Virus record (IMG/VR): IMGVR_UViG_3300045049_000096
Span: 1 to 40,048 of that record
Length of the DNA: 40,048 nt
Direction: 5' to 3' (one strand)
Source: a virus
In this document: positions 2,614-24,386 of the stretch, one piece after another
Layout of the letters: every line of letters begins with the position of its first letter
Position numbering within the stretch: the first letter of the stretch is position 1
Position numbers and translations under genes: made by a program
Notes under the pieces: model-generated
Seen by the model: only the letters and a program-made list of their open reading frames with translations
What the model was told of the DNA's origin: nothing
Databases searched by the model: none

Positions 2614-2894
2614 GATGTTCCTCTGGGGCCGGCACCGACCGCGATAATGTAGGTTCCATCTCCACGGTCAACAATCGCACATGGAACACGCGTTACCATG
2701 CGAACCTTAAAGCCATCGAGAAATTCAAGGTCCATCGGAACGCCAGCCGCGCGCAGCAACCACATCCTTTCTGCTGGTGTTAGGTCTGCCGCCTTCGTGC
2801 CGACAACAGGTTTAGCAAACATGCTGGCATGAACATCAGCGATTGGATCGCCATCAAATCCATTTGTTGGAAGAAGCTTGTCGTAATCGTTCAT
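2610..2894 (-). CDS. Hypothetical protein, 94 residues
   Basis: The frame overlaps both neighbours by four bases (ATGA at each junction), which strongly supports a real, translationally coupled gene. The product has an acidic N-terminus, a central part reading LTPAERMWLLRAAGVPMD and a C-terminal segment rich in beta-type residues (VRMVTRVPCAIVDRGDGTYIIAV by pattern). I recognise no family. It sits between the mosaic accessory protein and NinB, so it could be accessory or recombination-linked; nothing in the sequence decides this. Confidence 0.7.
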   Translation of the reverse strand: MNDYDKLLPTNGFDGDPIADVHASMFAKPVVGTKAADLTPAERMWLLRAAGVPMDLEFLDGFKVRMVTRVPCAIVDRGDGTYIIAVGAGPRGTS

Positions 2895-4447
2895 GCTTCG
2901 TCACCCTGCCGGCTTGCCGCCATTGCCGCATCGATGGCTTCGCGCAGGGTCTTTTCCTGTGCCAGCGGTGCCCATACGTCGCTGATGCGCCAGTCTCCGG
3001 TACTTTCAAACCGGTACGTTTGCGCGTGGTTCTGTTCCAGCCAATCCAGCCGGGCCGCATCCGTTGCGTCTGCCGCGCTGGTGGCGCCGTAGGTGTACTC
3101 CTGCCCGCCGCCTTTCAGTAAGAAGTCATGCACGGCGTATGCGTCCTCGCGCTGGTTGAACTTTAGGACGATGGTCCGTCCTTCGCCGCCGTTGCTTTCC
3201 AATGTGACGAAAGCCTTGCTCAGTTCAGCCAGCAGCCCGCCCGCACTGGCAGCGTCAGCTTTCCCCGTCGCGCTGGTGGCGAGCGAGTGGCGCGGGGCGA
3301 GAGCTGCTAACAGGACGCTGGCGCGCTGGTTAACCCATTCGTCCGACTTTGCGATTTCAGCGCCGCGAGACAGTTCCTCAAGCGCGGCCAGAACTTCGAC
3401 CAAGGGGCGTACTTCGCCCTCGCCCGCAGTGGTTCTTCTTTCGGCATCTCGGGTAGCAGCATCAAAATCGGGCCAATTTGCCTTCAGATAGCCCGCGTCC
3501 TCGGTGTTCCACGCTTTCAGGAACGACACGGCAGCGTCATCGTTTTCGTTCTCGGCCAGTTCCAGCGCGAACTTGATGGCCTGCGCCCCCGTCGCGTCGG
3601 AAGGCGAGACAGCGGCAGAGGCGGCGTAGACCGGGATGGTTGCGCCCGCTATCTCGTCCGCGTTCGGCCAGATGTTCGACGGCATGCCGATGCGGTGTGC
3701 TTTCAATTCAGCCAGCGCGTGCGGGGTCAGGTAGCCGAGCGGCGCTGCGTCCTGCTGTGCATGCGCCGCCTCAGGTGCAGCCAAGATGGCGCGTGCGCGG
3801 TCAGGCATGTCGGCGGACAGGTAGCCCTCGCTGATCTGGCGAACAAGCGCCCACATCTCCGCAGTCGGGGCCGGCGCATGGCACACAGGCGCGGGAGCGG
3901 TAGCACGACCCAGCGCATCAATCGCGGCGGCTGTCACGTTCTCGATGATGTTGTCGTCCTCGTCGGCCGGTGAAAAATCATCCTCACTCATCGTACCAAC
4001 GCTCCAAGCGCTCCACACGCGGCCACAGTAATAAAGGCCCGTCAGCGCACCAGCAACCGCGTCACGCATGCGCTGGCGTGTTTCCTCGTCGGCCGCCACC
4101 ACTGGTGCATCAGCTTGGTCGATAGCGGGCGATACCTGTCCGATAGGGTGGGCGGCACGGGCTTTCCATGCTTCCCACGCCATATCGGTAGTCACGCGAA
4201 CATAACCTTCTTTGTATCGATCAAGATCCGCAACCATGAACGGCGCATTTTCTCGGCTGGCCCATGCTTCAAACATCTGCCGCTCATCCGCTGCCGGTGC
4301 ATCTGCTGCAGCCCGGCGAGCGAGGGCGATCAGGGCGAGCGCTTCATCAGCGGAAAGCGACAAGCCGCCGTTGAAGCGGTTGCGCGCCAGTGCTTCCAGA
4401 TTGTCCAGGTCGATGCCTGCCGGTGCGTGATTGGTGGTGTTGGTCAT
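2891..4447 (-). CDS. Mosaic accessory protein with constant boxes (copy 1)
   Basis: The 518-residue protein is a patchwork. Short boxes such as APAGIDLD, LARRAAADAPA, AHPIGQVSPAIDQ, APVCHAPA, AHAQQDAA and AAVSPSDATG recur in the same order in the + strand gene at 20573-21829, but the segments between them differ. The box DNA reads as identical in the two genes at 4401-4426, 4288-4327, 4116-4153, 3869-3895, 3742-3766 and 3587-3616. The C-terminus has ATSAADATDAARLDWLE and ends in an AMAASR tail also found in the other copy. This layout resembles the modular Ead/Ea22-like accessory proteins of phages, but I cannot assign a function. The start overlaps the upstream TGA as ATGA. Confidence 0.8.
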   Translation of the reverse strand: MTNTTNHAPAGIDLDNLEALARNRFNGGLSLSADEALALIALARRAAADAPAADERQMFEAWASRENAPFMVADLDRYKEGYVRVTTDMAWEAWKARAAHPIGQVSPAIDQADAPVVAADEETRQRMRDAVAGALTGLYYCGRVWSAWSVGTMSEDDFSPADEDDNIIENVTAAAIDALGRATAPAPVCHAPAPTAEMWALVRQISEGYLSADMPDRARAILAAPEAAHAQQDAAPLGYLTPHALAELKAHRIGMPSNIWPNADEIAGATIPVYAASAAVSPSDATGAQAIKFALELAENENDDAAVSFLKAWNTEDAGYLKANWPDFDAATRDAERRTTAGEGEVRPLVEVLAALEELSRGAEIAKSDEWVNQRASVLLAALAPRHSLATSATGKADAASAGGLLAELSKAFVTLESNGGEGRTIVLKFNQREDAYAVHDFLLKGGGQEYTYGATSAADATDAARLDWLEQNHAQTYRFESTGDWRISDVWAPLAQEKTLREAIDAAMAASRQGDEA

Positions 4448-5208
4448 GCTGCTTGCTCCATGAATAGTTGTTGTTGTGCGGGAGTTGCTACCTGAATGAG
4501 TTCGCCGGCATCAAGCTGCGCAAAGCGGCTCCATTGCTGTGCCATTGCCTCTGCCATGCCGGGGAACGAGCGGCTACGCTCGCGCCAGCGGTCGGGTCCC
4601 GGCGATGCCAGATGCACTGCCGACCATTCCTTATGCTCCTGCGTGCCTTTCTTCGGCGGCGTCAGGCGGTTGGTGGCGACCAAATGCGGCAGGCCTTCCA
4701 GCTCAAACCCGGTGGCCTTAAAGAATGGATCACCGAACCACCACGGCTGAACAACCTGGCGCGGGCCGGGCTGGATCAGGGCGCGCGCATGGCAGTGCAT
4801 GATCGGGTTTTCGATGGCTTTGCCCTTGCGCATCTTCGCCCGCTTGAAAAGCTTGTAGAACTCGGCACCCTTGTGCAGCTCGTCCCACATGAATTCCAGG
4901 CGCTCCTTCTCAGTCATCTTTTCGTAGGCGGCGACCACCTCGGCTGGGTACTGCCACGGCGCCAGTTTCTTTGGCGGCTTGTCCAGCCAGCGCACGCCGG
5001 CATTCGTCAGCCGGGTACAGGTCGGGTGGAAAATTCCAATGTCCCAGTCCCCGTCGAGTACATCGCGCACATCCCCCTGGTAGTGCGGGCCGGGGCGCTC
5101 GGTTGGCAGGAGGTCGCAGCTCATTGCCATCACGCCGGCACGGATGAGCGCATCCCGCACAATGCCCGACGACTCGCAGCCGACAAGCGCGGTCAGTGGC
5201 TTACGCAT
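4444..5208 (-). CDS. Cytosine-C5-methyltransferase-like protein (copy 1)
   Basis: The 254-residue product starts MRKPLTALVGCESSG and looks like a short C5-methyltransferase core: a SAM-type loop (VGCESSGIVRDA, residues 9-20), an acidic strand end (SCDLL), a motif-IV-like HPTCTRLTNAG (61-71) and a motif-VI-like IENPIMH. The usual Pro-Pro-Cys is Pro-Thr-Cys here, and no obvious target-recognition domain follows, so activity is uncertain. The start at 5208 has GGGAG upstream and matches the start of the + strand paralogue at 19875; the longer in-frame extension to 5259 is not needed. It has an insert of about 20 residues after residue 80 that the paralogue lacks. The stop overlaps the next start. 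Confidence 0.75.
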   Translation of the reverse strand: MRKPLTALVGCESSGIVRDALIRAGVMAMSCDLLPTERPGPHYQGDVRDVLDGDWDIGIFHPTCTRLTNAGVRWLDKPPKKLAPWQYPAEVVAAYEKMTEKERLEFMWDELHKGAEFYKLFKRAKMRKGKAIENPIMHCHARALIQPGPRQVVQPWWFGDPFFKATGFELEGLPHLVATNRLTPPKKGTQEHKEWSAVHLASPGPDRWRERSRSFPGMAEAMAQQWSRFAQLDAGELIQVATPAQQQLFMEQAA

Positions 5209-5512
5209 CGCCGCTCCCACGTTGGCCGTTCTCATTGCTGGCGGCCTGGACCTTTTCAACCAGCACCGGGATCGGGGAACCCATCCCGACCAACCTTTCC
5301 ATTGCCCGGCTCACCGTCTGCAACTGCTGCAGGGCGTGGTAGGCCAGCATGGAATACGTATCCTCGGCAGACAGGCCGCCAATGCGCGCAGTCATCATCA
5401 CTTGGCGCGCGACAGGAATAATCTGCTGCGCTTTCTCGATTGCCGCGCGCATCTCGGCCGGCGTGGTTGCCACATCCAGCGGCGCGAATACATCAGCTTG
5501 CATCCAGTTCAT
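5201..5512 (-). CDS. Hypothetical helical protein, 103 residues
   Basis: I choose ATG at 5512 (MNWMQADVFAP) because GGAG lies nine bases upstream; an in-frame ATG at 5521 has the same GGAG almost touching it. The product is predicted largely helical (TPAEMRAAIEKAQQIIPVARQ, AYHALQQLQTVSRAMERL). Its end, ENGQRGSGDA, nearly equals the end (ENGHRGSGDA) of the otherwise unrelated protein at 19286-19882, because the DNA around this junction (5198-5233) is shared with 19850-19885 at 34 of 36 bases. It overlaps the methyltransferase-like gene by eight bases. Function unknown. Confidence 0.65.
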   Translation of the reverse strand: MNWMQADVFAPLDVATTPAEMRAAIEKAQQIIPVARQVMMTARIGGLSAEDTYSMLAYHALQQLQTVSRAMERLVGMGSPIPVLVEKVQAASNENGQRGSGDA

Positions 5513-7145: not shown

Positions 7146-8593
7146 CACGTCAGGCTCTCCACGATGATGCTGTTCAGGTGCGCATGGTCCAGGTCCAGCA
7201 GCCAGGTGGCGATCGCCGCGCGCGTGGCGCCGAAGTGGTCGACCAGAACGGCGATGATGTCGTCGTCGCTGGGCGGCGTCTCAATCGACGGCTTGACGTT
7301 GTACGGCACCGGCTGGCGGTAGATGACCGTTTCCGGCTGCGCGTGCACGTCGTCCTGGTCAACGTACTGCGCGGCCGGCTCGCCGCTGTCGGAAACCGAC
7401 ATGGAGGCAATGCCCATGCCGGTCGTCACAGCATCCTCGACAACACGTTCAAACGCATATGCGCGGCCGAACAGTGGATCAGGAACTTCGACCAGGCGCA
7501 TCGGAACGCGCTCGGCCATGATGCGCGCGTCCTCGGCCAGCGCTTCCTCGTGCGCCAGAGGCAGTTCGAGCGCCAGCGCGGCCTGGTACTTGGTCGTCAG
7601 GCTGTTGACGGCCATGTCCTTCGCCATCTGCGCCATGCTGGCCATGCCGCCGAACCAGTTCAGGTCCAGCTCCAGCTTCTTCGCGAATTCCAGGTTGTCC
7701 TGCAGCGCGCGCGCGTCGCCTTCGCGCATACCGATCTGCTGGATGCGCTGCAGTTCCTGCATGATGCGCTGGTTCTTTTCCTGCTCGGCCTGCATCTGCC
7801 TCATGCGCTCGGCCTGCTCGGCTGCCGCCTGTTCGGCCTGGCGCTGCTGCTCGGCGGCGGCGCGGTCGCGCTCGGCCTGCTCGGCGCGCAGGCGCTCCAG
7901 CTCGGCGCGCTCGGCGGCCACCTGGCGGTTGTAGGCTTCACGGTCCAGCGCCCGCTGATGCAGTGCGCGCAGTTCGTCGACGGCCGTGTTCAGCGCGTTG
8001 ACAGCGTCGTCCAGGTGCTCGTCGTACATGGCCGGGTCCAGGCGCTGCGTGACCAGCTCCTCGACCTTCGCCGCCAGCGTCTCGGAATCGGCGCCGGCCA
8101 GCTGCGCCGACAGGTTGCGGATGTGCGCGATGCGTCCTTCGATGGCCTCGATGCGGGCCCGCTCGGCGGCGATCTTGCGCTGCTTTTCTTCCTCGATGCG
8201 CGCTTCCTCGTCCTCGATCGCGCGGGCGTGCTTCGCCTCCTCGGCCTTCGCTGCGTCTGCCAACTTGTTGTAGTGCTCCAGGATCAGCTTGCCGGACTGG
8301 TCGATCGGGCGCTTCGCTTCCGTTTTCGCCTTGTCGGCCGTCGTGCGAACCTTGACGAAGCCGGCGCGCAGTTCCTTCGCCTTGGCCATGCCTTCCTTCG
8401 TCGTGATGTCGTATTTCACGCGGCTGGCGCTCCGCTTCAGGGCTGACAACTGGTCTTCGAACGGCTTGAACAGCTCGACGGCGTACTGCGTCGGGTTCAG
8501 CACTACCAGCGCCGGATCGGCCTTTTTTACTTCGGCGACGACGCCGTCGATGATGGTGTCGTCGGCTGCTGTGGTGTTCGTGGTCGTGTTCAT
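7145..8593 (-). CDS. Long coiled-coil protein of the recombination operon
   Basis: The start at 8593 (MNTTTNTTAADD) has GAGGGG nine bases upstream; a longer in-frame start at 8629 lacks this and would overlap the exonuclease gene more. The 482-residue product has a charged helical N-terminal half and a very long Ala/Glu/Arg/Gln coiled coil (about residues 115-290, for example EEARIEEEKQRKIAAERARI). A more globular C-terminal part follows. Phages with YqaJ exonucleases often carry a similar coil-containing protein next to the annealase and exonuclease, so a role in the recombination complex is likely but not proven. It also resembles SMC-like arm sequences without any ATPase motif. Confidence 0.8.
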   Translation of the reverse strand: MNTTTNTTAADDTIIDGVVAEVKKADPALVVLNPTQYAVELFKPFEDQLSALKRSASRVKYDITTKEGMAKAKELRAGFVKVRTTADKAKTEAKRPIDQSGKLILEHYNKLADAAKAEEAKHARAIEDEEARIEEEKQRKIAAERARIEAIEGRIAHIRNLSAQLAGADSETLAAKVEELVTQRLDPAMYDEHLDDAVNALNTAVDELRALHQRALDREAYNRQVAAERAELERLRAEQAERDRAAAEQQRQAEQAAAEQAERMRQMQAEQEKNQRIMQELQRIQQIGMREGDARALQDNLEFAKKLELDLNWFGGMASMAQMAKDMAVNSLTTKYQAALALELPLAHEEALAEDARIMAERVPMRLVEVPDPLFGRAYAFERVVEDAVTTGMGIASMSVSDSGEPAAQYVDQDDVHAQPETVIYRQPVPYNVKPSIETPPSDDDIIAVLVDHFGATRAAIATWLLDLDHAHLNSIIVESLT

Positions 8594-8606: not shown

Positions 8607-9221
8607 TCAATTCGTGGTTTGGATGTCATTCAGTGCTACGTTCACTTCGGCCAGGAAGCGTTTGACTTCTTGCTCCAGGCACCTGATAGCCGACTTGTCG
8701 GCGCGGACCTGCTGGATATAAAGGTCATGCGGCGCCCGGAAGGCAGGATCGAACGACAGGAAGTCGACCCAGTCCCACTCGAACACCCAGCACTCGCCCT
8801 GCGTTTGCCAGTAGTGCGCATCGGGCACGCCCAGCGCCAGCGTGCGGGCGTGGATGCCCGAGTTGTACGGCGACTTGATCTCGATGCCGCCCGGCTGGCC
8901 GATCACGATCCCGTCACCGGACGCCCCCACCCATTTGATGCGGCTGTGCACGGCGAACCCGACCTGGCGCACCAGGTTGCCAGTGCGCTGCTGGTAGATC
9001 TGGCGGGCCATGTCTTCGGCCTCGTGGCCCCAGTCCTTGGCGATGCCGCCCGAGTCGCGCAGTGGGCCGCCGGTCAGCCGCTCGCCGACCAGTTCCCACA
9101 TATACGCCTCGCGCGCGCCCTTGCCGGCCATGATGTCGGCGAATCGGCTGGAGGTGGCGAATCCGGCGCGCGCGGCGTGCCACTCGGGCGATCCTTGGAT
9201 GCAATCAATGAAGCGCGGCAT
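8607..9221 (-). CDS. YqaJ / lambda-exonuclease-type 5'-3' DNA exonuclease
   Basis: The 204-residue product has the conserved pattern of the viral recombinase family: GSPEWHAARAGFATSSRF near the N-terminus, WGHEAEDMAR (residues 64-73), and the catalytic run ASGDG to GIEIKSPYNS. D103, E114 and K116 fit the PD-(D/E)xK nuclease triad, and QTQGECWVFEWDWVDF follows. The enzyme would resect double-stranded ends to give 3' single strands for the ERF protein encoded directly upstream. The start ATG overlaps the ERF stop as TAATG, so the two are co-translated. Confidence 0.9.
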   Translation of the reverse strand: MPRFIDCIQGSPEWHAARAGFATSSRFADIMAGKGAREAYMWELVGERLTGGPLRDSGGIAKDWGHEAEDMARQIYQQRTGNLVRQVGFAVHSRIKWVGASGDGIVIGQPGGIEIKSPYNSGIHARTLALGVPDAHYWQTQGECWVFEWDWVDFLSFDPAFRAPHDLYIQQVRADKSAIRCLEQEVKRFLAEVNVALNDIQTTN

Positions 9222-10165
9222 TATTTCCCCGCCTGCTGTGCGGCTGCCGCATTGGCGCGCGCGGTCAGGTCTTCCAGCTTCGGCGTCAGTTGGGCTCGCT
9301 CCAGTTCCGTACGGCCGCGCCAGAACGCGCCGAAAGAGCTATGTCCGCCATCAGCTGCTTTTCTTGCGGCGTCGACGAGTTCTTCGCTGGGCGGCGGCAC
9401 GTCTTTCCCCTTGCCTGCGGCGACCTGCTGCGGCTTCGGCCGGCGGATGTCCTGCGCCATGCTGCGCAGTTCGGCGCGCTCGCCCTGCGTCGGGCCTGCG
9501 CCGGCGCCGTCATCATCTTCGCCATCCTGTACGGCCATGCCAGTGATCGCCAGCAGCGTGTAGCGTTCCAGGTACTTTACGGCCGAGCCGATCGCCTGGA
9601 TTGGATTCTTGCCGCCGGACTGGTCGATGCCGGACGTTAGCGTCGTATGCTCCTGGTGGCCCAGCTCGTGCGTCAGCGTGCAGGTGACGCTGACGATGCC
9701 GCTGCCCTGCTGCGTGGTCCAACTGTGGCTGATGCCGACCTTGGCCAGCTCCTCGACGATGGCGCCGCACACGGCGGCCAGATCGGCATAGGCGTAGCTG
9801 TAACCGGCCTTGCCGTCGCGCCCCGTCACGCTGGCCGTCTTGTTCTTGACGACGGCAGGCGGGTTCTGCTTGAACGTCGTCATCGCCTGCACGTACGCCT
9901 GGCGGGCCTCGCTGGCTTCCATGCGTTCCTTCAGGGTGATGAGGCGGTCCAGTTCCTCGATGCTGGCGCCGCGGGCGACGGCCTGTTGCAGCAGTTGCAT
10001 GCCGGCGCTGACCTGTGGAACAACCTGCTGAACCGCTGGGGGCGTGCCCGGCAGAACGTTCTGCGGAATTACAGGCGGGGTGCCTGGCAATACCTGCACT
10101 TCTTGCGCCGGCGTGGCCGTGCGATCCGCCGCACGTCGGCGCGGCGCTTTCGTTGTGGTTTCCAT
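9221..10165 (-). CDS. erf: ERF-family single-strand annealing protein
   Basis: The 314-residue product carries the ERF core at about residues 70-215: YSYAYADLAAVCGAIVEEL, then ISHSWTTQQGSGIVSVTC, THELGHQEHTTL, DQSGGKNPIQAIGSAVKYL and RYTLLAITG. ERF proteins anneal complementary single strands during phage recombination and genome circularisation. The N-terminus is Pro-rich with VLPGTPP twice, and the C-terminus is a charged linker. It is the first gene of the early minus operon, about 45 bases below the predicted transcription start, with AAGG before the ATG. Together with the exonuclease and NinB it forms a RecA-independent recombination set. Confidence 0.9.
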   Translation of the reverse strand: METTTKAPRRRAADRTATPAQEVQVLPGTPPVIPQNVLPGTPPAVQQVVPQVSAGMQLLQQAVARGASIEELDRLITLKERMEASEARQAYVQAMTTFKQNPPAVVKNKTASVTGRDGKAGYSYAYADLAAVCGAIVEELAKVGISHSWTTQQGSGIVSVTCTLTHELGHQEHTTLTSGIDQSGGKNPIQAIGSAVKYLERYTLLAITGMAVQDGEDDDGAGAGPTQGERAELRSMAQDIRRPKPQQVAAGKGKDVPPPSEELVDAARKAADGGHSSFGAFWRGRTELERAQLTPKLEDLTARANAAAAQQAGK

Positions 10166-14448: not shown

Positions 14449-14940
14449 ATGCAACAGCGTTACATTGGAACTAAGATCATCACTGCCGAGCCCATGACTC
14501 GTGCCGCCTATAACGCTTTCCGCGGCTGGACGCTGCCGGCCGACGAGAACGGCGCGGACGACGGTTACCTGGTCGAGTACCAGGACGGCGGCAAGCCGAA
14601 TGTGCCGGGTCGCGCCGGCTACGTCAGCTGGTCACCGAAGGAGCAGTTCGACAACGCATATCGGCCGTGCGCTGCCATGACGTTCGGCCTCGCGCTTGAG
14701 GCGCTGAAGCGCGGCGACCGCGTCGCTCGCGCCGGCTGGAACGGCAAGGGCATGTTCGTGTACCTGGTGCCCGCCAACAGCTACCCCGCACAGACCGGCG
14801 CCGCGAAGGCCTTCTTCGGCGAGGGCGGCATGGTCCCGTACAACGCCTACCTCGCGCTCAAGGGCGCCGACGACACCGTGAGCACCTGGGCGCCGAGCGG
14901 CAGCGATGCGCTGGCCGAGGACTGGCTGATCGTCGAATAA
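14449..14940 (+). CDS. DUF2829 / Tad2-like protein with an N-terminal extra domain
   Basis: The C-terminal half (from residue 76) has the DUF2829 pattern: MTFGLALEALKRGDRVARAG, WNGKGMFVYLVP, PYNAYLALKGADDTVSTW and a closing DALAEDWLIVE. DUF2829 is the family of Tad2 anti-defence proteins, which bind the signalling nucleotide of Thoeris immunity. Here it is joined to an N-terminal domain of about 70 residues (YIGTKIITAEPMTRAAYNAF, GYLVEYQDGGKPN, YVSWSPKEQFD). ATG at 14449 has AAAGGG six bases upstream; the ATG two codons earlier is too close to it. Family membership is fairly clear; anti-Thoeris activity is inferred. Confidence 0.75.
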   Translation: MQQRYIGTKIITAEPMTRAAYNAFRGWTLPADENGADDGYLVEYQDGGKPNVPGRAGYVSWSPKEQFDNAYRPCAAMTFGLALEALKRGDRVARAGWNGKGMFVYLVPANSYPAQTGAAKAFFGEGGMVPYNAYLALKGADDTVSTWAPSGSDALAEDWLIVE

Positions 14941-14949
14941 CCACCACCC

Positions 14950-14968
14950 CGCCCGGCCAGTCCGGGCG
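14950..14968 (+). promoter_or_regulatory. GC hairpin between genes
   Basis: CGCCCGG (14950-14956) pairs with CCGGGCG (14962-14968) around a 5-base loop, ten bases after the stop of the Tad2-like gene. No T run follows, so it is more likely an RNA-stability or processing element than a terminator. Confidence 0.5.
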
Positions 14969-14991
14969 CACAACAACAACGAGAGCACGAC

Positions 14992-18489: not shown

Positions 18490-19059
18490 ATGAATACGAT
18501 GACTGAAAGCCCGACCCCGAGCGGCGACGATGATATCCGCCGCGTCCTGCAGGACGAATTGATCGAGCGCGTGCTGGTGCTCAAGCGCCGGACGCGCAGC
18601 GCATCCATCCGCCTGCAGATCCCGAACACAGACATCTTCATCCTGGCCGGCACACCCGAGGATCTGCGAAAGGTGGCGCCTGATGTGCTCGCCGCTCCGG
18701 ATGCCAACCTATCCGCTGTACGAGAGGCGCGCAACGAGGCGCAGTGGATCAGCGTCGAGGCGCAACTGCCGGAGAAAGAGTGCCTTGCGGTTTACGTGAC
18801 GCCGCGCGGCAAGCAACGGATGATCCGCGCAAAGTACGTACGGAAGTTCCAGATCGAAGCTCAGGGCGACGACTGCGAAACCGACTACAACGAAGACGAC
18901 GACACGTTCTACATCAAGGCCGGCTGGCTGGAGTGCATTGACAACTGGGGCGAATATTCCAGCTGCTATGTGACCGAAGGCTTCGTCACGCACTGGCAGC
19001 CATTGCCCGAATTTCCGGTTGCAGCCCCGGCCGCCAGCAAGGAAGGAGACATAGCATGA
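18490..19059 (+). CDS. DUF551-containing protein, 189 residues
   Basis: The C-terminal part matches the DUF551 pattern common in phage accessory proteins: QWISVEAQLPEKECLAVYVT, ARY-like strand positions, and the closing FVTHWQPLPEFP. The N-terminal part (DDDIRRVLQDELIERVLVLK) is a charged helix. An alternative ATG three codons later is possible. The last codons (AASKEGDIA) form the Shine-Dalgarno of the next gene and nearly repeat the end of that gene. Function of the domain is unknown. Confidence 0.65.
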   Translation: MNTMTESPTPSGDDDIRRVLQDELIERVLVLKRRTRSASIRLQIPNTDIFILAGTPEDLRKVAPDVLAAPDANLSAVREARNEAQWISVEAQLPEKECLAVYVTPRGKQRMIRAKYVRKFQIEAQGDDCETDYNEDDDTFYIKAGWLECIDNWGEYSSCYVTEGFVTHWQPLPEFPVAAPAASKEGDIA

Positions 19060-19289: not shown

Positions 19290-19882
19290 GCATCGCAACC
19301 GGCAAGGAACTGAATGCCGAGACGTTCGGCGACTTCGTGCAGCGCCTGCGCCACCACGTGCGCGGTGAGGGCGTGGACTGGCATTTCACGGCCGACGCTC
19401 TGTTCACTGTGCAGGCGCGCCGCATCATCTTCGGCATAGACAAGGATTACACCGACAAGTGGGCCGTGTACGTCGACGACAGTATGTATTTCAGCGTTCT
19501 GGAGTACTGGGGCGACCAAGGGCCGGAGAGTCGGGCGCGACTGCACCGACTGGCGCAAGAGCAAGGCGGCTGCGGCTTCATGTCGCTCAGCGAGAGCGAC
19601 CAGTGGGACATCCTGGCCGATCTGCCAGAGCACACAGTTTCGGGCTGGGACGAGCGCTGGGACATCGTCAACGTGCACTTTACCAAGGAAGCCGCCGAGG
19701 CGTTCATCCGTCGCAAGCAGCACGACTACCGCGACGGCTTGCGGGTGTACGTCGAAGCACAAGTCTACTGCTGGGAGTTCAACGAGATCATCAAGGGCCT
19801 ACTCGACGGCAAGATCGTGTACGCGGAGTTGGCCGAGTCCGCCAGCACTGAGAACGGCCATCGTGGGAGCGGTGATGCGTAA
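19286..19882 (+). CDS. Hypothetical protein, 198 residues, ending in the shared cassette junction
   Basis: GGAGGT lies before the ATG at 19286, one of the best ribosome sites of the window, and the start overlaps the upstream stop. The product has VQRLRHHVRGEGVDWHFTAD, then a MSLSESDQWDILADLPEH stretch and the C-terminal pattern VHFTKEAAEAFIRRKQHDY, WEFNEIIKGLLDGKI that I recall from accessory regions of other phages, without known function. Its last ten residues, ENGHRGSGDA, belong to a DNA segment (19850-19885) shared with the - strand cassette at 5198-5233. Confidence 0.65.
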   Translation: MSIATGKELNAETFGDFVQRLRHHVRGEGVDWHFTADALFTVQARRIIFGIDKDYTDKWAVYVDDSMYFSVLEYWGDQGPESRARLHRLAQEQGGCGFMSLSESDQWDILADLPEHTVSGWDERWDIVNVHFTKEAAEAFIRRKQHDYRDGLRVYVEAQVYCWEFNEIIKGLLDGKIVYAELAESASTENGHRGSGDA

Positions 19883-20576
19883 GCCGATGCGCGTTCTGGT
19901 GGCTTGCGAGTATTCCGGTCGGGTACGTGATGCCTTCATCCGCGCCGGCCACATGGCGATGAGCTGCGACATGCTTGACACCGAGGCTCCCGGCGCGCAC
20001 TACAAGGGCGACATTCGGGACGTGCTGTACGACGGATGGGATCTGATGGTCGCGCATCCGCCGTGCACGAGGCTGACGAACAGCGGTGTTCGCTGGCTGA
20101 AGGTGCCGCCACCTGGGAAGACGCTCGACGAGATGTGGGCTGACCTGGAGGCCGCGGCCGAGTTTTACAAGCTGCTGCGCGATGCGCCGATCCCGCGCAA
20201 GGCCATCGAGAACCCGATCATGCACTGCTATGCCCGCGAGCGTATCAAGATCGGCTTCCGCCAGGTCGTGCAGCCGTGGTGGTTTGGCGAGGAAGCATTC
20301 AAGGCGACCGGACTGGAACTGATCGGTCTGCCGCCCTTGGAGGCGACGAACCGTCTGATACCGCCGAAGGCTGGCACAGACGAACACAAGGCATGGTCGA
20401 AAGTGCACCTTGCCTCACCGGGCCCGGACCGCTGGAAGGATCGAAGCCGGACGTACGAGGGAATCGCGCAGGCGATGGCGGACCAGTGGGGCAAGCTGGG
20501 CCGCCTGCAGGTAGCAGAAATGGCAGCCGCGGTGCCAGCAGCACAACAACAACTATTCATGGAGCAAGCAGCATGA
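19875..20576 (+). CDS. Cytosine-C5-methyltransferase-like protein (copy 2)
   Basis: The 233-residue product is the paralogue of the gene at 4444-5208. It has LVACEYSGRVRDAFIRAG (SAM loop, residues 8-25), SCDML, a motif-IV-like HPPCTRLTNSG (residues 61-71, Pro-Pro-Cys intact), IENPIMH (motif-VI-like, 111-117) and VQPWWFG. It is shorter than a full C5 methyltransferase and shows no separate target-recognition domain. ATG at 19875 is chosen over the GTG at 19863 because GGGAG lies before it and copy 1 starts at the same point. The end (QQQLFMEQAA) and the 38 bases around the stop (20541-20578) are identical to copy 1. Confidence 0.75.
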   Translation: MRKPMRVLVACEYSGRVRDAFIRAGHMAMSCDMLDTEAPGAHYKGDIRDVLYDGWDLMVAHPPCTRLTNSGVRWLKVPPPGKTLDEMWADLEAAAEFYKLLRDAPIPRKAIENPIMHCYARERIKIGFRQVVQPWWFGEEAFKATGLELIGLPPLEATNRLIPPKAGTDEHKAWSKVHLASPGPDRWKDRSRTYEGIAQAMADQWGKLGRLQVAEMAAAVPAAQQQLFMEQAA

Positions 20577-21829
20577 CCGACACGAAAAACACGAGCACCG
20601 CACCGGCAGAAGCCGACGTAATCGCCCAACAGGTAGCCGCATGGCGCCGCGAAGTCGCACGTCTGCAAGACCTGATAAGCCACGCGACGGGCGGCACCGC
20701 ACCGGCAGGCATCGACCTGGACAAGATCCAGCGCTACAGCGTAGGCGTCGAGCGCTGCACGATGGACCCCGACAACTACGAGGGCGAATGGGTGAAGCTC
20801 GAAGACGTGCGCGCCCTCGCTCGCCGGGCTGCAGCAGATGCACCGGCAGCGGCCCTGAGCAAGCGAAGCCCGATTGATGTGGCATCGTCGCTGATCGCGG
20901 AATGGGACGAGGGAGTGCAGGACGCAGATGACTGGGGCAACCGCGCCGCCTCCCACCTGAACAAAATGGCGCTCGCCTTGATTGAGGCATGGGCCGCCCA
21001 ACAGCCCGCGCTCGCCCACCCTATCGGACAGGTATCGCCCGCTATCGACCAGCCGGCGCAGGCTGTAGCTGCGCGGCTCGACCCCAATCAGGTCCAGACC
21101 GTCGCGGATCGCATTCGCAATACGCCGGCCCTCACTGCATCTCCCGCGCCTGTGTGCCATGCGCCGGCCGCCGACGTGCTTGCTGCGATCTGCGAAAAGG
21201 CAGGTTATATCAATCTGTCGATGCAGGACATTCGTGAAGTTCTCGCCGCGCACGGATGCATGATTACATCGGCGCATGCACAGCAGGACGCAGCGCTGCC
21301 GAATCTCGCCATCCTGCACGACGGCATCTGGTACACGCCGCATCGCGCCGCTGTCTCGCCTTCCGACGCGACGGGGAAAGCTGATGATACCGGCGCAGGC
21401 GAAATCGTCGCATGGCGTTGCAATCGACTGGGCCAGAACGGGAAGATTGTGCAGCATCATCGACAGGACTACCCGTATCACTTGGTCGACAAGTGGGAGT
21501 ACGTGGACGATCTGAAAGTGGCGGCTGAATTGCGCGGCGAACGGGGTTACAAAGCATGCGATTCACGTGTGAACTGGCAACCGCTTTGCATTGCCACCAG
21601 CGCAGCAGACGCGAAGGATGCGGAGCGGTCGGACCAGTGGGCGCGCGGCTACTTCTGCGCCGTCGGCGTCGCACTGCGCGAGGACGGCGACACGGCCATC
21701 GTACGGAGCCTGTTCGCGCAGGGAGGCGATGCGATGAAGGCTGACCCGCTTGACGTCGAATTGTTCATCGAGCGCGGCTTGTTGGATCGTTCGGCAATGG
21801 CGGCAAGCCGAAATGGGGAGGCGAAATGA
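20573..21829 (+). CDS. Mosaic accessory protein with constant boxes (copy 2)
   Basis: The 418-residue product starts with ATGA over the methyltransferase-like stop. It carries the same constant boxes as the gene at 2891-4447, in the same order: APAGIDLD, LARRAAADAPA, AHPIGQVSPAIDQ, APVCHAPA, AHAQQDAA, AAVSPSDATG, ATSAADA and AMAASR. The box DNA is at 20699-20724, 20813-20852, 21014-21051, 21143-21169, 21272-21296 and 21347-21376. Segments between the boxes, such as DPDNYEGEWVKLEDVR or RLGQNGKIVQHHRQDYPYHL, are not shared. The function is unknown; the modular layout recalls Ead/Ea22-like proteins. Confidence 0.8.
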   Translation: MTDTKNTSTAPAEADVIAQQVAAWRREVARLQDLISHATGGTAPAGIDLDKIQRYSVGVERCTMDPDNYEGEWVKLEDVRALARRAAADAPAAALSKRSPIDVASSLIAEWDEGVQDADDWGNRAASHLNKMALALIEAWAAQQPALAHPIGQVSPAIDQPAQAVAARLDPNQVQTVADRIRNTPALTASPAPVCHAPAADVLAAICEKAGYINLSMQDIREVLAAHGCMITSAHAQQDAALPNLAILHDGIWYTPHRAAVSPSDATGKADDTGAGEIVAWRCNRLGQNGKIVQHHRQDYPYHLVDKWEYVDDLKVAAELRGERGYKACDSRVNWQPLCIATSAADAKDAERSDQWARGYFCAVGVALREDGDTAIVRSLFAQGGDAMKADPLDVELFIERGLLDRSAMAASRNGEAK

Positions 21830-22098
21830 GCGCCGTCACGACTGTCGCATATGTCGTCGGAGCTATAGCGATGACCGCTGGCGGCTTTGCCCTCGCCGCA
21901 TTTCTGCTGTTTTGGGCCGCCAGTGCATCGGGCAAATATGCTTGGCGTATCTGGAAGAATCTGTCCGGCATCTACAGGGTGGAAACCATGAAATATTGGT
22001 TCCGCCGCATGGAGAAGGAAGGGAATTTTGTTTTGCGCCAGGCGCTCGCCGATAACCCGGCCTCCCAAGAGGCGGCAGAGCAGAAGGGAGGCGAGTGA
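21826..22098 (+). CDS. Small membrane protein, 90 residues
   Basis: The N-terminus holds one clear membrane segment (AYVVGAIAMTAGGFALAAFL and on to LFWAAS, about residues 8-33), followed by a cytoplasmic-type basic stretch (KYAWRIWKNLSG, MKYWFRRMEKEG). The start overlaps the upstream stop as ATGA with GGGGAGG before it. The C-terminal EQKGGE codons provide the ribosome site for the next gene. Function unknown. Confidence 0.65.
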   Translation: MSAVTTVAYVVGAIAMTAGGFALAAFLLFWAASASGKYAWRIWKNLSGIYRVETMKYWFRRMEKEGNFVLRQALADNPASQEAAEQKGGE

Positions 22099-22346
22099 TG
22101 CGCGTCATCACCCTCATCCCGATGTCCAAGCGCGCCAAACAGATCATCAAGCAGCACGGCGAGCGCTGGGAAGTCGTGCGCAAGAAATCTGTCGTGCTTT
22201 TTAACTGCAACCCCGGCCCGTGGCTGTACGTGCAGCCGCTGACCGAGGAGCGAGCGCCGGCGAACGACGCGCGGGCCGCCAAGATCGAATCCGCGTCGCG
22301 GTGGGTTCACGAATTCAACGACGACAACTTTAAGGTTGCACCATGA
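22098..22346 (+). CDS. Hypothetical basic protein, 82 residues
   Basis: ATG at 22098 overlaps the upstream TGA by one base (TGATG) and has GGGAGG in front; a GTG one codon earlier is the alternative. The product is basic at the N-terminus (MSKRAKQIIKQHGERWEVVR) with a strand part (KKSVVLFNCNPGPWLYVQPL) and an acidic end. I recognise no family. Confidence 0.6.
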   Translation: MRVITLIPMSKRAKQIIKQHGERWEVVRKKSVVLFNCNPGPWLYVQPLTEERAPANDARAAKIESASRWVHEFNDDNFKVAP

Positions 22347-23104
22347 AAGGACACCCCATGGCCGCTGAACAAAACAACGAAGCCGAGCGCGCGCCCGAGG
22401 GCGACATGCTCGTCGCCTACGAAACGTGGTTGAAGCAACGCGGACCACTTGGCGTTGGTGCCATGCCGGAACGGATATTCTTCGCCGGATGGCTCGCTGC
22501 CCGCCGCCCGTCCGCACCCATAGGTGAGGACGGACTGCCGATCAGCGATGCCGAAATCGCCGGCATCATGGGCTGGCGTGGGCCCGGCGCCTACACCGAG
22601 GCGACGTTGCGCAAAATCCGCCGCGTCGTCGAACACGCCATCGCTGCTGATCGCCGGGCGCGCGAGGTTACCGTAACCAATTACGGTAACCCTGTGGATA
22701 AGTGTGGTTCCCCACTAGCTGCGCAGGGCGTGAGCATCAATGAGGACGTCGAGTTTCAGATCAGGCTGTGCGATGTCATGGTCGCGGCGAAGACCGGCCA
22801 GAACGTAACGACGCAGTCCGAGAAGGTTCAGTCGCTGACCGATTGGCTCGACGAGCAATTCGCCGACCTCCGCGCCCAGCTTGCGCGCCAGAGCCATGGC
22901 GTAAGCACGGCCGACATCGTGAGCATCATGCTGTGGCTGTACCGTCGGCTGCCGCGCGCCTATGGCCGTCCGCCGCACGTTGAGGCGCCGATCGCCGTGC
23001 TGGCCAAGGCTGCCGGGATTGATGTCGCTGACTCGTTCAGCGAGCGCGATCCCGCACCGCCGCTGTCCAGCGAACAGCAGGCAGACAAAGGAGAGAAGGC
23101 ATGA
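22343..23104 (+). CDS. Hypothetical protein, 253 residues, carrying an inverted repeat and DnaA box in its DNA
   Basis: The start at 22343 overlaps the upstream stop as ATGA (AAGG before it); ATG at 22358 (MAAEQNNE) has AAGGA at a good distance and is about as likely. The product begins with EAERAPEGDMLVAYETWLKQ, has FFAGWLAARRPS, a central polar linker and a helical second half (VQSLTDWLDEQFADLRAQLA, IVSIMLWLYRRLPRAYGRPP). I recognise no family. The linker region (NYGNPVDKCG) is encoded by the inverted repeat and DnaA box at 22666-22701, which may matter more than the peptide there. Confidence 0.65.
   Translation: MKGHPMAAEQNNEAERAPEGDMLVAYETWLKQRGPLGVGAMPERIFFAGWLAARRPSAPIGEDGLPISDAEIAGIMGWRGPGAYTEATLRKIRRVVEHAIAADRRAREVTVTNYGNPVDKCGSPLAAQGVSINEDVEFQIRLCDVMVAAKTGQNVTTQSEKVQSLTDWLDEQFADLRAQLARQSHGVSTADIVSIMLWLYRRLPRAYGRPPHVEAPIAVLAKAAGIDVADSFSERDPAPPLSSEQQADKGEKA
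22666..22701. repeat. 11-bp inverted repeat with adjacent perfect DnaA box
   Basis: GGTTACCGTAA (22666-22676) and TTACGGTAACC (22681-22691) form perfect arms around CCAA. One base later TGTGGATAA (22693-22701) is the complement of the DnaA consensus TTATCCACA. The arms contain the same GTAAC core as the initiator-gene iterons, and another GTAACG is at 22805. Confidence 0.6.
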
Positions 23105-23424
23105 GCCTAGACGTTTATCTTATCGACCAGGACGGCGATCGAGTCTACAGCGCGAACATCACCCACAACCTGAACAAGATGGCGCATGAGGCAGGAATCT
23201 ACGCCTGTCTGTGGCGCCCCGATGAAAACGGCATCGAGAAAGCTGTACAGATAATCGAGCCGCTGCGCTTGGGCATTGCGGATATGGTAACGAGGCCGAC
23301 CTACTTCGAGCAATTCAACGCGCCGAATGGATGGGGAAAGTACGAGCACTTCCTGCCGTTCTGCGCGAAGTATCTGGAGGCGTGTATCGCGCATCCGGAA
23401 GCAATTGTTCGCGTATGGCGATAA
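23101..23424 (+). CDS. Hypothetical protein, 107 residues, of a family seen in many phages and bacteria
   Basis: The product reads MSLDVYLIDQDGDRVYSANI, THNLNKMAHEAGIYACLWRP, then NGWGKYEHFLPFCAKYLEAC and a final HPEAIVRVWR. I know this pattern (SANITHNLxxMAxEAGIY ... NGWGxYE) as a widespread small family without an assigned function. The start overlaps the upstream stop as ATGA with GGAGAG before it. It is among the best conserved of the accessory genes here. Confidence 0.75.
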   Translation: MSLDVYLIDQDGDRVYSANITHNLNKMAHEAGIYACLWRPDENGIEKAVQIIEPLRLGIADMVTRPTYFEQFNAPNGWGKYEHFLPFCAKYLEACIAHPEAIVRVWR

Positions 23425-23435
23425 GGAGCAAACCA

Positions 23436-23756
23436 ATGTCGGATGAACTGAAACCGCAGGCCACGATCGACACGCCAGAGTTCGCGGACATGATGCTTGC
23501 ATGGGCGCTATCAAAGGCCGGCGACGATGCAGCAGAGCGGTACGACAAGATCATCGCCCACATCAACGCATGGGGCGCTCGACTGGCTGGCGTGCCGGCC
23601 GGGATGAAGCTGGTGCCGATCCTATCGACGGACGTGATGGATATAGCCGGCCGCGAAATGCTGCGAGCTTGCGGACATGAACGGCCAACCAAACGCGACG
23701 CCGAACTGTGCTGGTCGGCCATGATCGACGCCGCACCGAAGCCGGAGGCTCCATGA
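23436..23756 (+). CDS. Hypothetical accessory protein, 106 residues
   Basis: ATG at 23436 has AGGAG eight bases upstream. The product has an N-terminal helical part (TPEFADMMLAWALSKAGDDA) and a C-terminal module VPAGMKLVPILSTDVMDIAG ... LCWSAMIDAAPKPEAP, the 'LVP...M..A...AMI.AAP' pattern common in mosaic phage accessory proteins. The function of this module is unknown. The stop overlaps the next start. Confidence 0.65.
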   Translation: MSDELKPQATIDTPEFADMMLAWALSKAGDDAAERYDKIIAHINAWGARLAGVPAGMKLVPILSTDVMDIAGREMLRACGHERPTKRDAELCWSAMIDAAPKPEAP

Positions 23757-23999: not shown

Positions 24000-24047
24000 G
24001 TCGTTCATTGGCGGCGCACTGGGCGCGGCGAGAACTGGAGAACGAAG

Positions 24048-24356
24048 ATGAGCGATCGATACACCGACGAGTTTGGCCCGAATGTGCAGAACATCCTGTG
24101 CCAAGGAACTCGCGTCATTCGCGGCCGCATCCCCGCCCAGGTTCGCGCCGAGTTGCGCTCAGCAGTTAAGGCGGGTGCGCTGGGCCATCTGAAAAAGGAT
24201 GGTCTCAAGCCGGAAATCTTCTTTCACCCGGACCACCTGCACGGCGCGCGCGAGCGCCAGAGGCGCGAAGCCGAGTACTCGGTCGGCTGCATCGCGAAAG
24301 TTGTGCTCGGCGGTGCGGAAAAGGCCGACGCCGTATTCAAGAGCTTTGCCGCCTAA
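24048..24356 (+). CDS. Hypothetical protein, 102 residues
   Basis: ATG at 24048 (MSDRYTDEFGPN) has GGAG seven bases upstream and lies below a strong promoter; the longer in-frame start at 23955 lies in the promoter and is rejected. The product is alpha/beta with a basic middle (RVIRGRIPAQVRAELRSAVK, LGHLKKDGLKPEIFFHPDHL) and a helical end. No family is recognised. A stable hairpin follows the stop. Confidence 0.65.
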   Translation: MSDRYTDEFGPNVQNILCQGTRVIRGRIPAQVRAELRSAVKAGALGHLKKDGLKPEIFFHPDHLHGARERQRREAEYSVGCIAKVVLGGAEKADAVFKSFAA

Positions 24357-24366
24357 CACCAACCCC

Positions 24367-24386
24367 GCGCCCGCTTCGGTGGGCGC
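24367..24386 (+). promoter_or_regulatory. UUCG-capped GC hairpin between genes
   Basis: GCGCCC (24367-24372) pairs with GGGCGC (24381-24386), extended by a G-T and a C-G pair to close a TTCG loop (24375-24378). C(UUCG)G loops are unusually stable in RNA. It lies ten bases after a stop and 19 bases before the next ATG, with no T run. Confidence 0.55.

What the first reader, a model, noticed from the sequence alone, without database searches (positions are those of the whole stretch)
20573..21829. Mosaic proteins built from nucleotide-identical constant boxes and unrelated variable segments
The genes at 20573-21829 (+) and 2891-4447 (-) share at least six boxes of 25-40 bases that I read as identical at the DNA level, in the same order (20699-20724 with 4401-4426; 20813-20852 with 4288-4327; 21014-21051 with 4116-4153; 21143-21169 with 3869-3895; 21272-21296 with 3742-3766; 21347-21376 with 3587-3616). 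Segments between them differ in length and sequence but keep the frame. Box identity extends to synonymous positions, so selection or gene conversion acts on DNA, not only on protein. A possible reading is a segment-shuffling system: boxes act as short homologies for the phage's ERF/YqaJ machinery, swapping variable peptide modules.
Basis: partly seen in the sequence, partly recalled or inferred. Interest (0 to 1): 0.78.

Follow-up and report, generated by a model that had tools for sequence, protein, structure and literature searches.

The report
Phage gene with swappable DNA-linked modules
Two genes of this environmental phage are chains of interchangeable protein modules joined by short linkers whose DNA is almost letter-for-letter the same in otherwise unrelated phages, which suggests the linkers are the crossover points where phages trade pieces of a gene.

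Summary
All six named boxes are 100% identical at the stated coordinates, and at least three more exist. Codon-degenerate scans of IMG/VR found about 23 such genes on about 21 contigs. Many of these phages share nothing else: the 112-kb phage G002 shares only 230 bases of box DNA with the window. The box HPIGQVSPAI is encoded identically in all 12 copies. Fourfold-degenerate sites differ by about 6.5% in boxes, against 18-75% in core genes of most of the same phage pairs. Segments between boxes form a shared pool in different combinations and sometimes different slots. Two contigs that are 99.9% identical over 4.7 kb upstream carry unrelated modules between two intact boxes. A tenth box behaved as predicted beforehand. 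Boxes encode Ala/Pro/Ser/Gly-rich linkers. Best reading: intragenic conserved-boundary mosaicism, i.e. homology-driven module exchange at linker DNA, in a protein built like Ea22. A specific ERF/YqaJ role is unproven: other carriers have RecT or Sak4-like proteins. Nearly all carriers come from one narrow range of metagenomes; no host is known.

The parts
20573..21829 (+). Mosaic gene b (418 aa): constant boxes alternating with variable modules
   Evidence: no Pfam or PHROGs hit
2891..4447 (-). Mosaic gene a (518 aa): same boxes in the same order, different modules
   Evidence: no Pfam hit
20541..20583 (+). Start-region box (end of upstream gene, RBS, ATG), 98% identical to 4437-4479 (-)
   Evidence: I3
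20698..20724 (+). Box B1 (APAGIDLD)
   Evidence: 14 of 17 copies nt-identical
20812..20852 (+). Box B2 (LARRAAADAPAA)
21013..21051 (+). Box B3 (AHPIGQVSPAIDQ)
   Evidence: 12 of 12 copies identical over 30 nt
21140..21170 (+). Box B4 (SPAPVCHAPA)
21270..21299 (+). Box B5 (AHAQQDAA)
21346..21384 (+). Box B6 (AVSPSDATGKAD)
21593..21629 (+). Box B7 (ATSAADAKDAER)
   Evidence: recombinant junction seen in L134
21790..21819 (+). Box B8 (SAMAASRNGE); two alleles in the family
4401..4427 (-). Box B1 of gene a
4288..4328 (-). Box B2 of gene a
4116..4154 (-). Box B3 of gene a
3869..3897 (-). Box B4 of gene a
3739..3778 (-). Boxes B9+B5 of gene a (APEAAHAQQDAAP)
3587..3616 (-). Box B6a of gene a
3232..3272 (-). 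Box B6b of gene a (GKADAASAGG), separated from B6a by an inserted module
3055..3086 (-). Box B7 of gene a
2910..2938 (-). Box B8 region of gene a
19863..20576 (+). DNA methyltransferase-like gene (phrog_757), upstream neighbour of gene b
4444..5259 (-). Paralogous DNA methyltransferase-like gene (phrog_757), upstream neighbour of gene a
9221..10165 (-). ERF-family single-strand annealing protein, candidate recombinase
8607..9221 (-). YqaJ/RecE-like exonuclease, candidate partner

Best explanation
The gene is a train of small interchangeable protein modules joined by about ten constant linkers. The linker DNA, not only the linker peptide, is held constant across a community of otherwise unrelated phages. 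When two phages meet in one cell (or a phage meets a prophage), homologous recombination inside two linkers swaps the module between them, in frame because linkers are shared in frame; repeated crossovers keep the linkers identical. SHOWN by comparison: nucleotide-level constancy of boxes, a shared module pool, recombinant joints at boxes, and a recent swap bounded by two boxes. INFERRED: the agent is a phage single-strand annealing protein and/or host RecA; linkers persist by homogenisation plus selection for exchangeability; the protein is an early-region accessory host-interaction factor of Ea22-like architecture whose modules are selected for diversity.
For: (1) Codon-degenerate scans return essentially one nucleotide version per box: B3 12/12 identical, B4 7/8, B6 9/10, B1 14/17, B10 5/6. 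Chance peptide matches in unrelated sequence use other codons. (2) Fourfold-site divergence is about 6.5% in boxes over all pairs and does not track phage relatedness, against 18-75% in core orthologs of most of the same pairs. Changes outside the two-allele box B8 are not enriched for silent ones. (3) Phages sharing no other DNA share boxes: G002 has only 230 b in common with the window; G002 and G011 share one 35-nt box. (4) Module pool: the same module at 88-98% nt between two boxes, with background similarity (42-57%) on both outer sides, for four gene pairs; slot changes. (5) L134 is 89% like G014 left of B7 and 92% like G013 right of it, 49-56% the other way round. (6) L146 and L148, from different metagenomes: 4 mismatches in 4,740 b upstream, 99.5% and 99.6% either side of a module replaced outright between B2-like and QQSSHSTAAVV boxes. 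(7) A prediction written beforehand for a tenth box was borne out. (8) Of the six longest shared modules, 10 of 12 ends lie at a box in both genes, while about 25% of positions are that near a box. (9) Boxes are 61% A/P/S/G with no aromatics, modules 32% and 7%. (10) Boxes are 27-50 nt; minimal homology for Red or RecA is about 30 bp (PMC2327257), and Rad52-like phage recombinases act on short homologies (PMC3945230).
Against: No exchange was observed experimentally. Nearly all carriers come from IMG samples numbered 3300044656-3300045976 (one from 3300048927), so a single habitat with recent shared ancestry of boxes could inflate identity. Boxes are not perfectly conserved: B8 has two alleles, G005 is diverged. 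Among all 44 shared-segment ends, including short ones, only 13 lie at boxes in both genes. No ERF or RecT was found in G002, G007, G009, G010 and G014, some of which are fragments. AlphaFold2 of the window protein was too poor to show linkers against domains (mean pLDDT 45).
Confidence: 0.8

Rival explanations
1. Boxes are conserved for the protein (linkers, docking or processing motifs), and their DNA identity only reflects recent common descent.
For: All boxes are in frame and encode linker-like peptides; carriers come from a narrow set of samples.
Against: Codon-degenerate scans found almost no synonymous variants. Fourfold sites in boxes are far less diverged than in core genes of most of the same phage pairs. 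Replacement changes in boxes are about as common as silent ones. Flanks are unrelated.
Confidence: 0.1
2. Boxes are recognition sites of a dedicated site-specific system (shufflon/invertase, integron-like, or diversity-generating retroelement).
For: Precise module replacement between constant sequences.
Against: The boxes of one gene differ from each other, always keep the same orientation and order, and no dedicated recombinase gene was seen to accompany them. Variable parts are unrelated modules of different length, not adenine-mutated copies of a template. Modules can skip or change slots. Reverse transcriptase and site-specific recombinase genes were not searched for by profile.
Confidence: 0.05
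3. Boxes carry another DNA- or RNA-level function (protein-binding site, RNA element, antisense gene), and modules recombine there only because it is conserved.
For: Constancy is at DNA level; B7 contains the complement of the E. coli Chi octamer.
Against: About ten different boxes without an evident common motif; no Rfam match in the window; antisense frames carry stops in nearly all genes.
Confidence: 0.1
4. The mosaics are assembly chimeras formed at short repeats.
For: All data are metagenome contigs, and boxes could confuse short-k assembly.
Against: The window and contig G004, which end at different points, carry identical versions of both genes. Every gene is one open frame. The same modules recur between the same boxes in different metagenomes.
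Confidence: 0.03

Closest known systems
Conserved boundary sequences between genes in lambdoid and other phages (model summarised in PMC3233612)
   Same: Short nucleotide-conserved stretches at module junctions, shared by otherwise dissimilar phages, proposed as homologous crossover points. This phage also has such blocks at gene edges.
   Different: The known model concerns boundaries between genes. Here about ten boundaries lie in series inside one gene, in frame, and encode linker peptides.
Ead/Ea22 mosaic proteins of lambda, P22 and Stx phages (PMC10834534)
   Same: Multi-part mosaic proteins with a shared central segment and exchangeable ends, including a DUF551 module. Lambda ea22's central ~110 nt is 87-93% identical in P22, P7, D6 and HK620. 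Weak Ea22 and DUF551 similarity in two relatives.
   Different: Window proteins have no Pfam hit. There are many short boxes instead of one long core, and box identity extends to silent sites.
Type I specificity subunit domain shuffling and domain movement (PMC3077401, abstract only)
   Same: Modules swap between conserved stretches of a gene and can change position.
   Different: Unrelated protein; only two target-recognition slots there (general knowledge), against about seven to nine here; exchange here is between different phages.
Protein-fragment shuffling in phages (PMC10684548)
   Same: Sub-gene mosaicism of phage proteins.
   Different: That study works at protein level; a text search of it found no mention of linkers.
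Neisseria pilin minicassettes (from general knowledge)
   Same: Conserved DNA separates exchangeable segments inside a gene.
   Different: There, silent copies lie in one genome and conversion is RecA-dependent; here a pool is shared among phages.

Membership tests
Ead/Ea22-like family (PF13935) | Pfam match above the gathering score | tested here: not met
   No hit for either window protein; one relative (G001b) weak, E=0.038, below cut-off
Ead/Ea22-like family (PF13935) | Mosaic of constant and exchangeable parts | tested here: met
Conserved-boundary phage mosaicism | Short nucleotide-conserved sequences at module junctions shared by otherwise unrelated phages | tested here: met
Conserved-boundary phage mosaicism | Module joints coincide with the conserved sequences | tested here: met
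   for long modules; short shared pieces only partly
Conserved-boundary phage mosaicism | Joints formed by homologous recombination in an experiment | not testable with these tools
   needs co-infection
Conserved-boundary phage mosaicism | Boundaries lie between genes | tested here: not met
   Most boundaries are inside one open reading frame; gene-edge blocks also exist. This is why it is called a variant.
Shufflon / invertase system | Identical inverted sites flanking segments that flip, with a recombinase gene | tested here: not met
   Boxes within a gene differ and keep one orientation; recombinase genes were not searched for exhaustively
Diversity-generating retroelement | Template and variable repeat of equal length differing at adenines, with a reverse transcriptase | tested here: not met
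   Modules differ in length and are unrelated; reverse transcriptase not searched by profile
ERF/YqaJ-driven system | Recombinase pair present in all carriers | tested here: not met
   ERF in 5 of 14, YqaJ in 5 of 14, RecT in 2, Sak4-like in G006 and probably G011; several contigs are fragments

The most novel reading that the evidence does not exclude
The linkers are a shared recombination code kept by selection for exchangeability. A community of unrelated phages maintains a common set of about ten in-frame DNA linkers, so any member can plug modules from any other into a host-interaction protein: a combinatorial protein-diversification system with no dedicated recombinase. A second, partly different set of boxes (QQSSHSTAAVV, GLSQFANGED, MCHA) coexists and hybridises with the first (G005).
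Probability: 0.35. Interest if true: 0.88.

Novelty: new variant of a known kind. Interest (0 to 1): 0.74.

Why it matters
Whether phage mosaicism arises mainly from homologous crossovers at conserved boundaries or from random illegitimate joining followed by selection is a long-standing question. Here the boundaries are numerous, short, inside one gene, and constant at silent sites across unrelated phages, with a recent swap between near-identical phages. The question becomes directly testable at one locus. It also suggests a simple way for phages to diversify a protein by domain shuffling without a specialised enzyme.

Tried and rejected
Pfam, PHROGs and Rfam gave no function for the window proteins. 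AlphaFold2 with an 11-row alignment gave pLDDT 45, not usable. B3 and B6 codon-degenerate scans of 84,980 bacterial and archaeal genomes found no true copy; two chance peptide matches had other codons. INPHARED phages: only methyltransferase hits in a DNA search, no protein match; no plasmid match. The close relative G016 (94% MCP) lacks the mosaic gene region, so the gene is accessory. Antisense coding rejected. A paper search by IMG sample number found nothing. Host not identified. Assembly chimera, shufflon and retroelement readings considered and set aside (see rivals).

Full report
OBSERVATION. The two genes share the boxes as stated; one search gives 27, 41, 39 and 30 nt at 100%, 30 nt at 97% (the named 25 nt identical), and an identical 27-nt core for the fourth box. 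The window is a complete IMG/VR record. It is the same phage as the 58.8-kb contig G004, identical over 25.6 + 14.3 kb but with different contig ends.

DNA-LEVEL CONSTANCY. I searched IMG/VR with patterns allowing every synonymous codon. For HPIGQVSPAID all copies had one nucleotide sequence although flanks were unrelated. The same held for PAPVCHAPA, SPSDATGK and APAGIDLD with few exceptions. For LARRAAADAPAA the scan also hit four unrelated phages, all with different codons; two bacterial chance hits for VSPSDATGKA likewise used other codons. These act as negative controls. Across all gene pairs fourfold-degenerate sites differ by 6.5% in boxes, while core orthologs of most of the same phage pairs differ by 18-75% at such sites (the exception is G003-G006 at 6.4%, whose boxes show 0 of 54). 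Against the consensus, 43 silent and 39 single replacement changes were seen, and box B8, which has two alleles, supplies 14 of the silent ones. Purifying selection on the peptide therefore does not explain the constancy. These counts are not phylogenetically corrected.

UNRELATED PHAGES. Carrier contigs range up to 112 kb. The window's major capsid protein is found in only two of the 14 first carriers, one of them the same phage. G002 shares 230 b with the window, nearly all box DNA; G011 shares 158 b; G002 and G011 share one 35-nt box.

A POOL OF MODULES. Modules recur in different contexts: G007/G008 between B3 and B4 (98.0% nt), G005/G006 B3-B4 (96.5%), G007/G012 B2-B3 (92.5%), G009/G013 (88.3%, after B3 in one and after B1 in the other), each with background similarity (42-57%) on both outer sides. 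LAILHDGIWY sits between B3 and B4 in G001b and between B5 and B6 in the window. L134 joins a G014-like left part to a G013-like right part at B7. The most direct case is L146 versus L148, from different metagenomes: 4 mismatches in 4,740 b upstream, gene start 99.5%, then an unrelated module (138 against 105 nt) between a B2-like box and QQSSHSTAAVV, then 99.6% again over 570 nt. After the gene's end the next cassette also differs, starting just after a shared ribosome-binding-site-like stretch. A prediction written before the last scan, that a tenth box would also prove nucleotide-constant, was met: 6 copies, one single-base difference.

WHAT IT ENCODES. Boxes are 61% Ala/Pro/Ser/Gly with no aromatic residues, modules 32% and 7% aromatic, as for flexible linkers between small domains; the structure prediction was too poor to confirm this. 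Weak matches to Ead_Ea22 and DUF551 in two relatives and the known mosaic nature of Ea22 (PMC10834534) suggest an accessory early-region protein of similar architecture. For comparison, lambda ea22 shares only a central ~110-nt block with P22, P7, D6 and HK620.

MECHANISM. Box lengths match the ~30-bp minimal homology for Red or RecA recombination (PMC2327257), and Rad52-like phage recombinases, Erf among those tested, recombine short or diverged homologies (PMC3945230). The window has ERF and YqaJ, but across carriers ERF, RecT and Sak4-like proteins alternate. Homology itself, not one enzyme, is the common factor. Gene-edge blocks in the same accessory region show that intragenic boxes are one end of a wider pattern.

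LIMITS. Nearly all carriers come from IMG samples 3300044656-3300045976 (L138 from 3300048927), whose habitat and hosts are unknown; all are metagenome assemblies; no exchange was observed directly. Over all 44 ends of shared pieces, short ones included, only 13 lie at boxes in both genes, against 10 of 12 for the six longest modules, a cut chosen after seeing the data.

VERDICT. The finding is real and stronger than first reported. It is best filed as a new, intragenic, serial variant of conserved-boundary phage mosaicism.

Noticed in passing
window 4444-5259 (-) and 19863-20576 (+): Two paralogous DNA methyltransferase-like genes (phrog_757, about 73% nt, 59% aa) sit directly upstream of the two mosaic genes, in inverted orientation about 15 kb apart; other carriers lack this neighbour.
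   Followed up: partly
window 5211-5249, 14938-14977, 18712-18742, 19023-19051, 19830-19875, 22064-22100, 22343-22392, 23052-23095, 23419-23459, 24010-24050, 24348-24386: Further short conserved blocks, many at gene starts and ends, shared with 4-8 otherwise unrelated contigs; the gene at 22343-23104 also has internal blocks (22508-22540, 22860-22896).
   Followed up: partly
window 3077, 3272, 21594: Three of the five E. coli Chi octamers in the window lie in the mosaic genes; box B7 contains the Chi complement CCACCAGC. Host unknown, so possibly coincidence.
   Followed up: no
G001 (IMGVR_UViG_3300044719_000044) about 51480-51805: A short ORF with B1, one module and half of B2 continues into unrelated sequence and ends at the start of a complete mosaic gene: possibly a truncated recombinant.
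   Followed up: no
L133, L146, L147, L148: A second set of boxes (QQSSHSTAAVV, GLSQFANGEDAGQPA, RRAAEAAPAA, PMCHA, PLSSEQQ) forms a parallel dialect that hybridises with the first in G005.
   Followed up: partly
L146 near 7700-7800: A one-base gap relative to L148 near the gene's end shifts the frame of the last residues; real or assembly error not resolved.
   Followed up: no
window 18490-19059: A gene with a DUF551-like look by eye (phrog_924, E=7e-9, unknown function), a domain type also seen weakly as a module in G005.
   Followed up: partly
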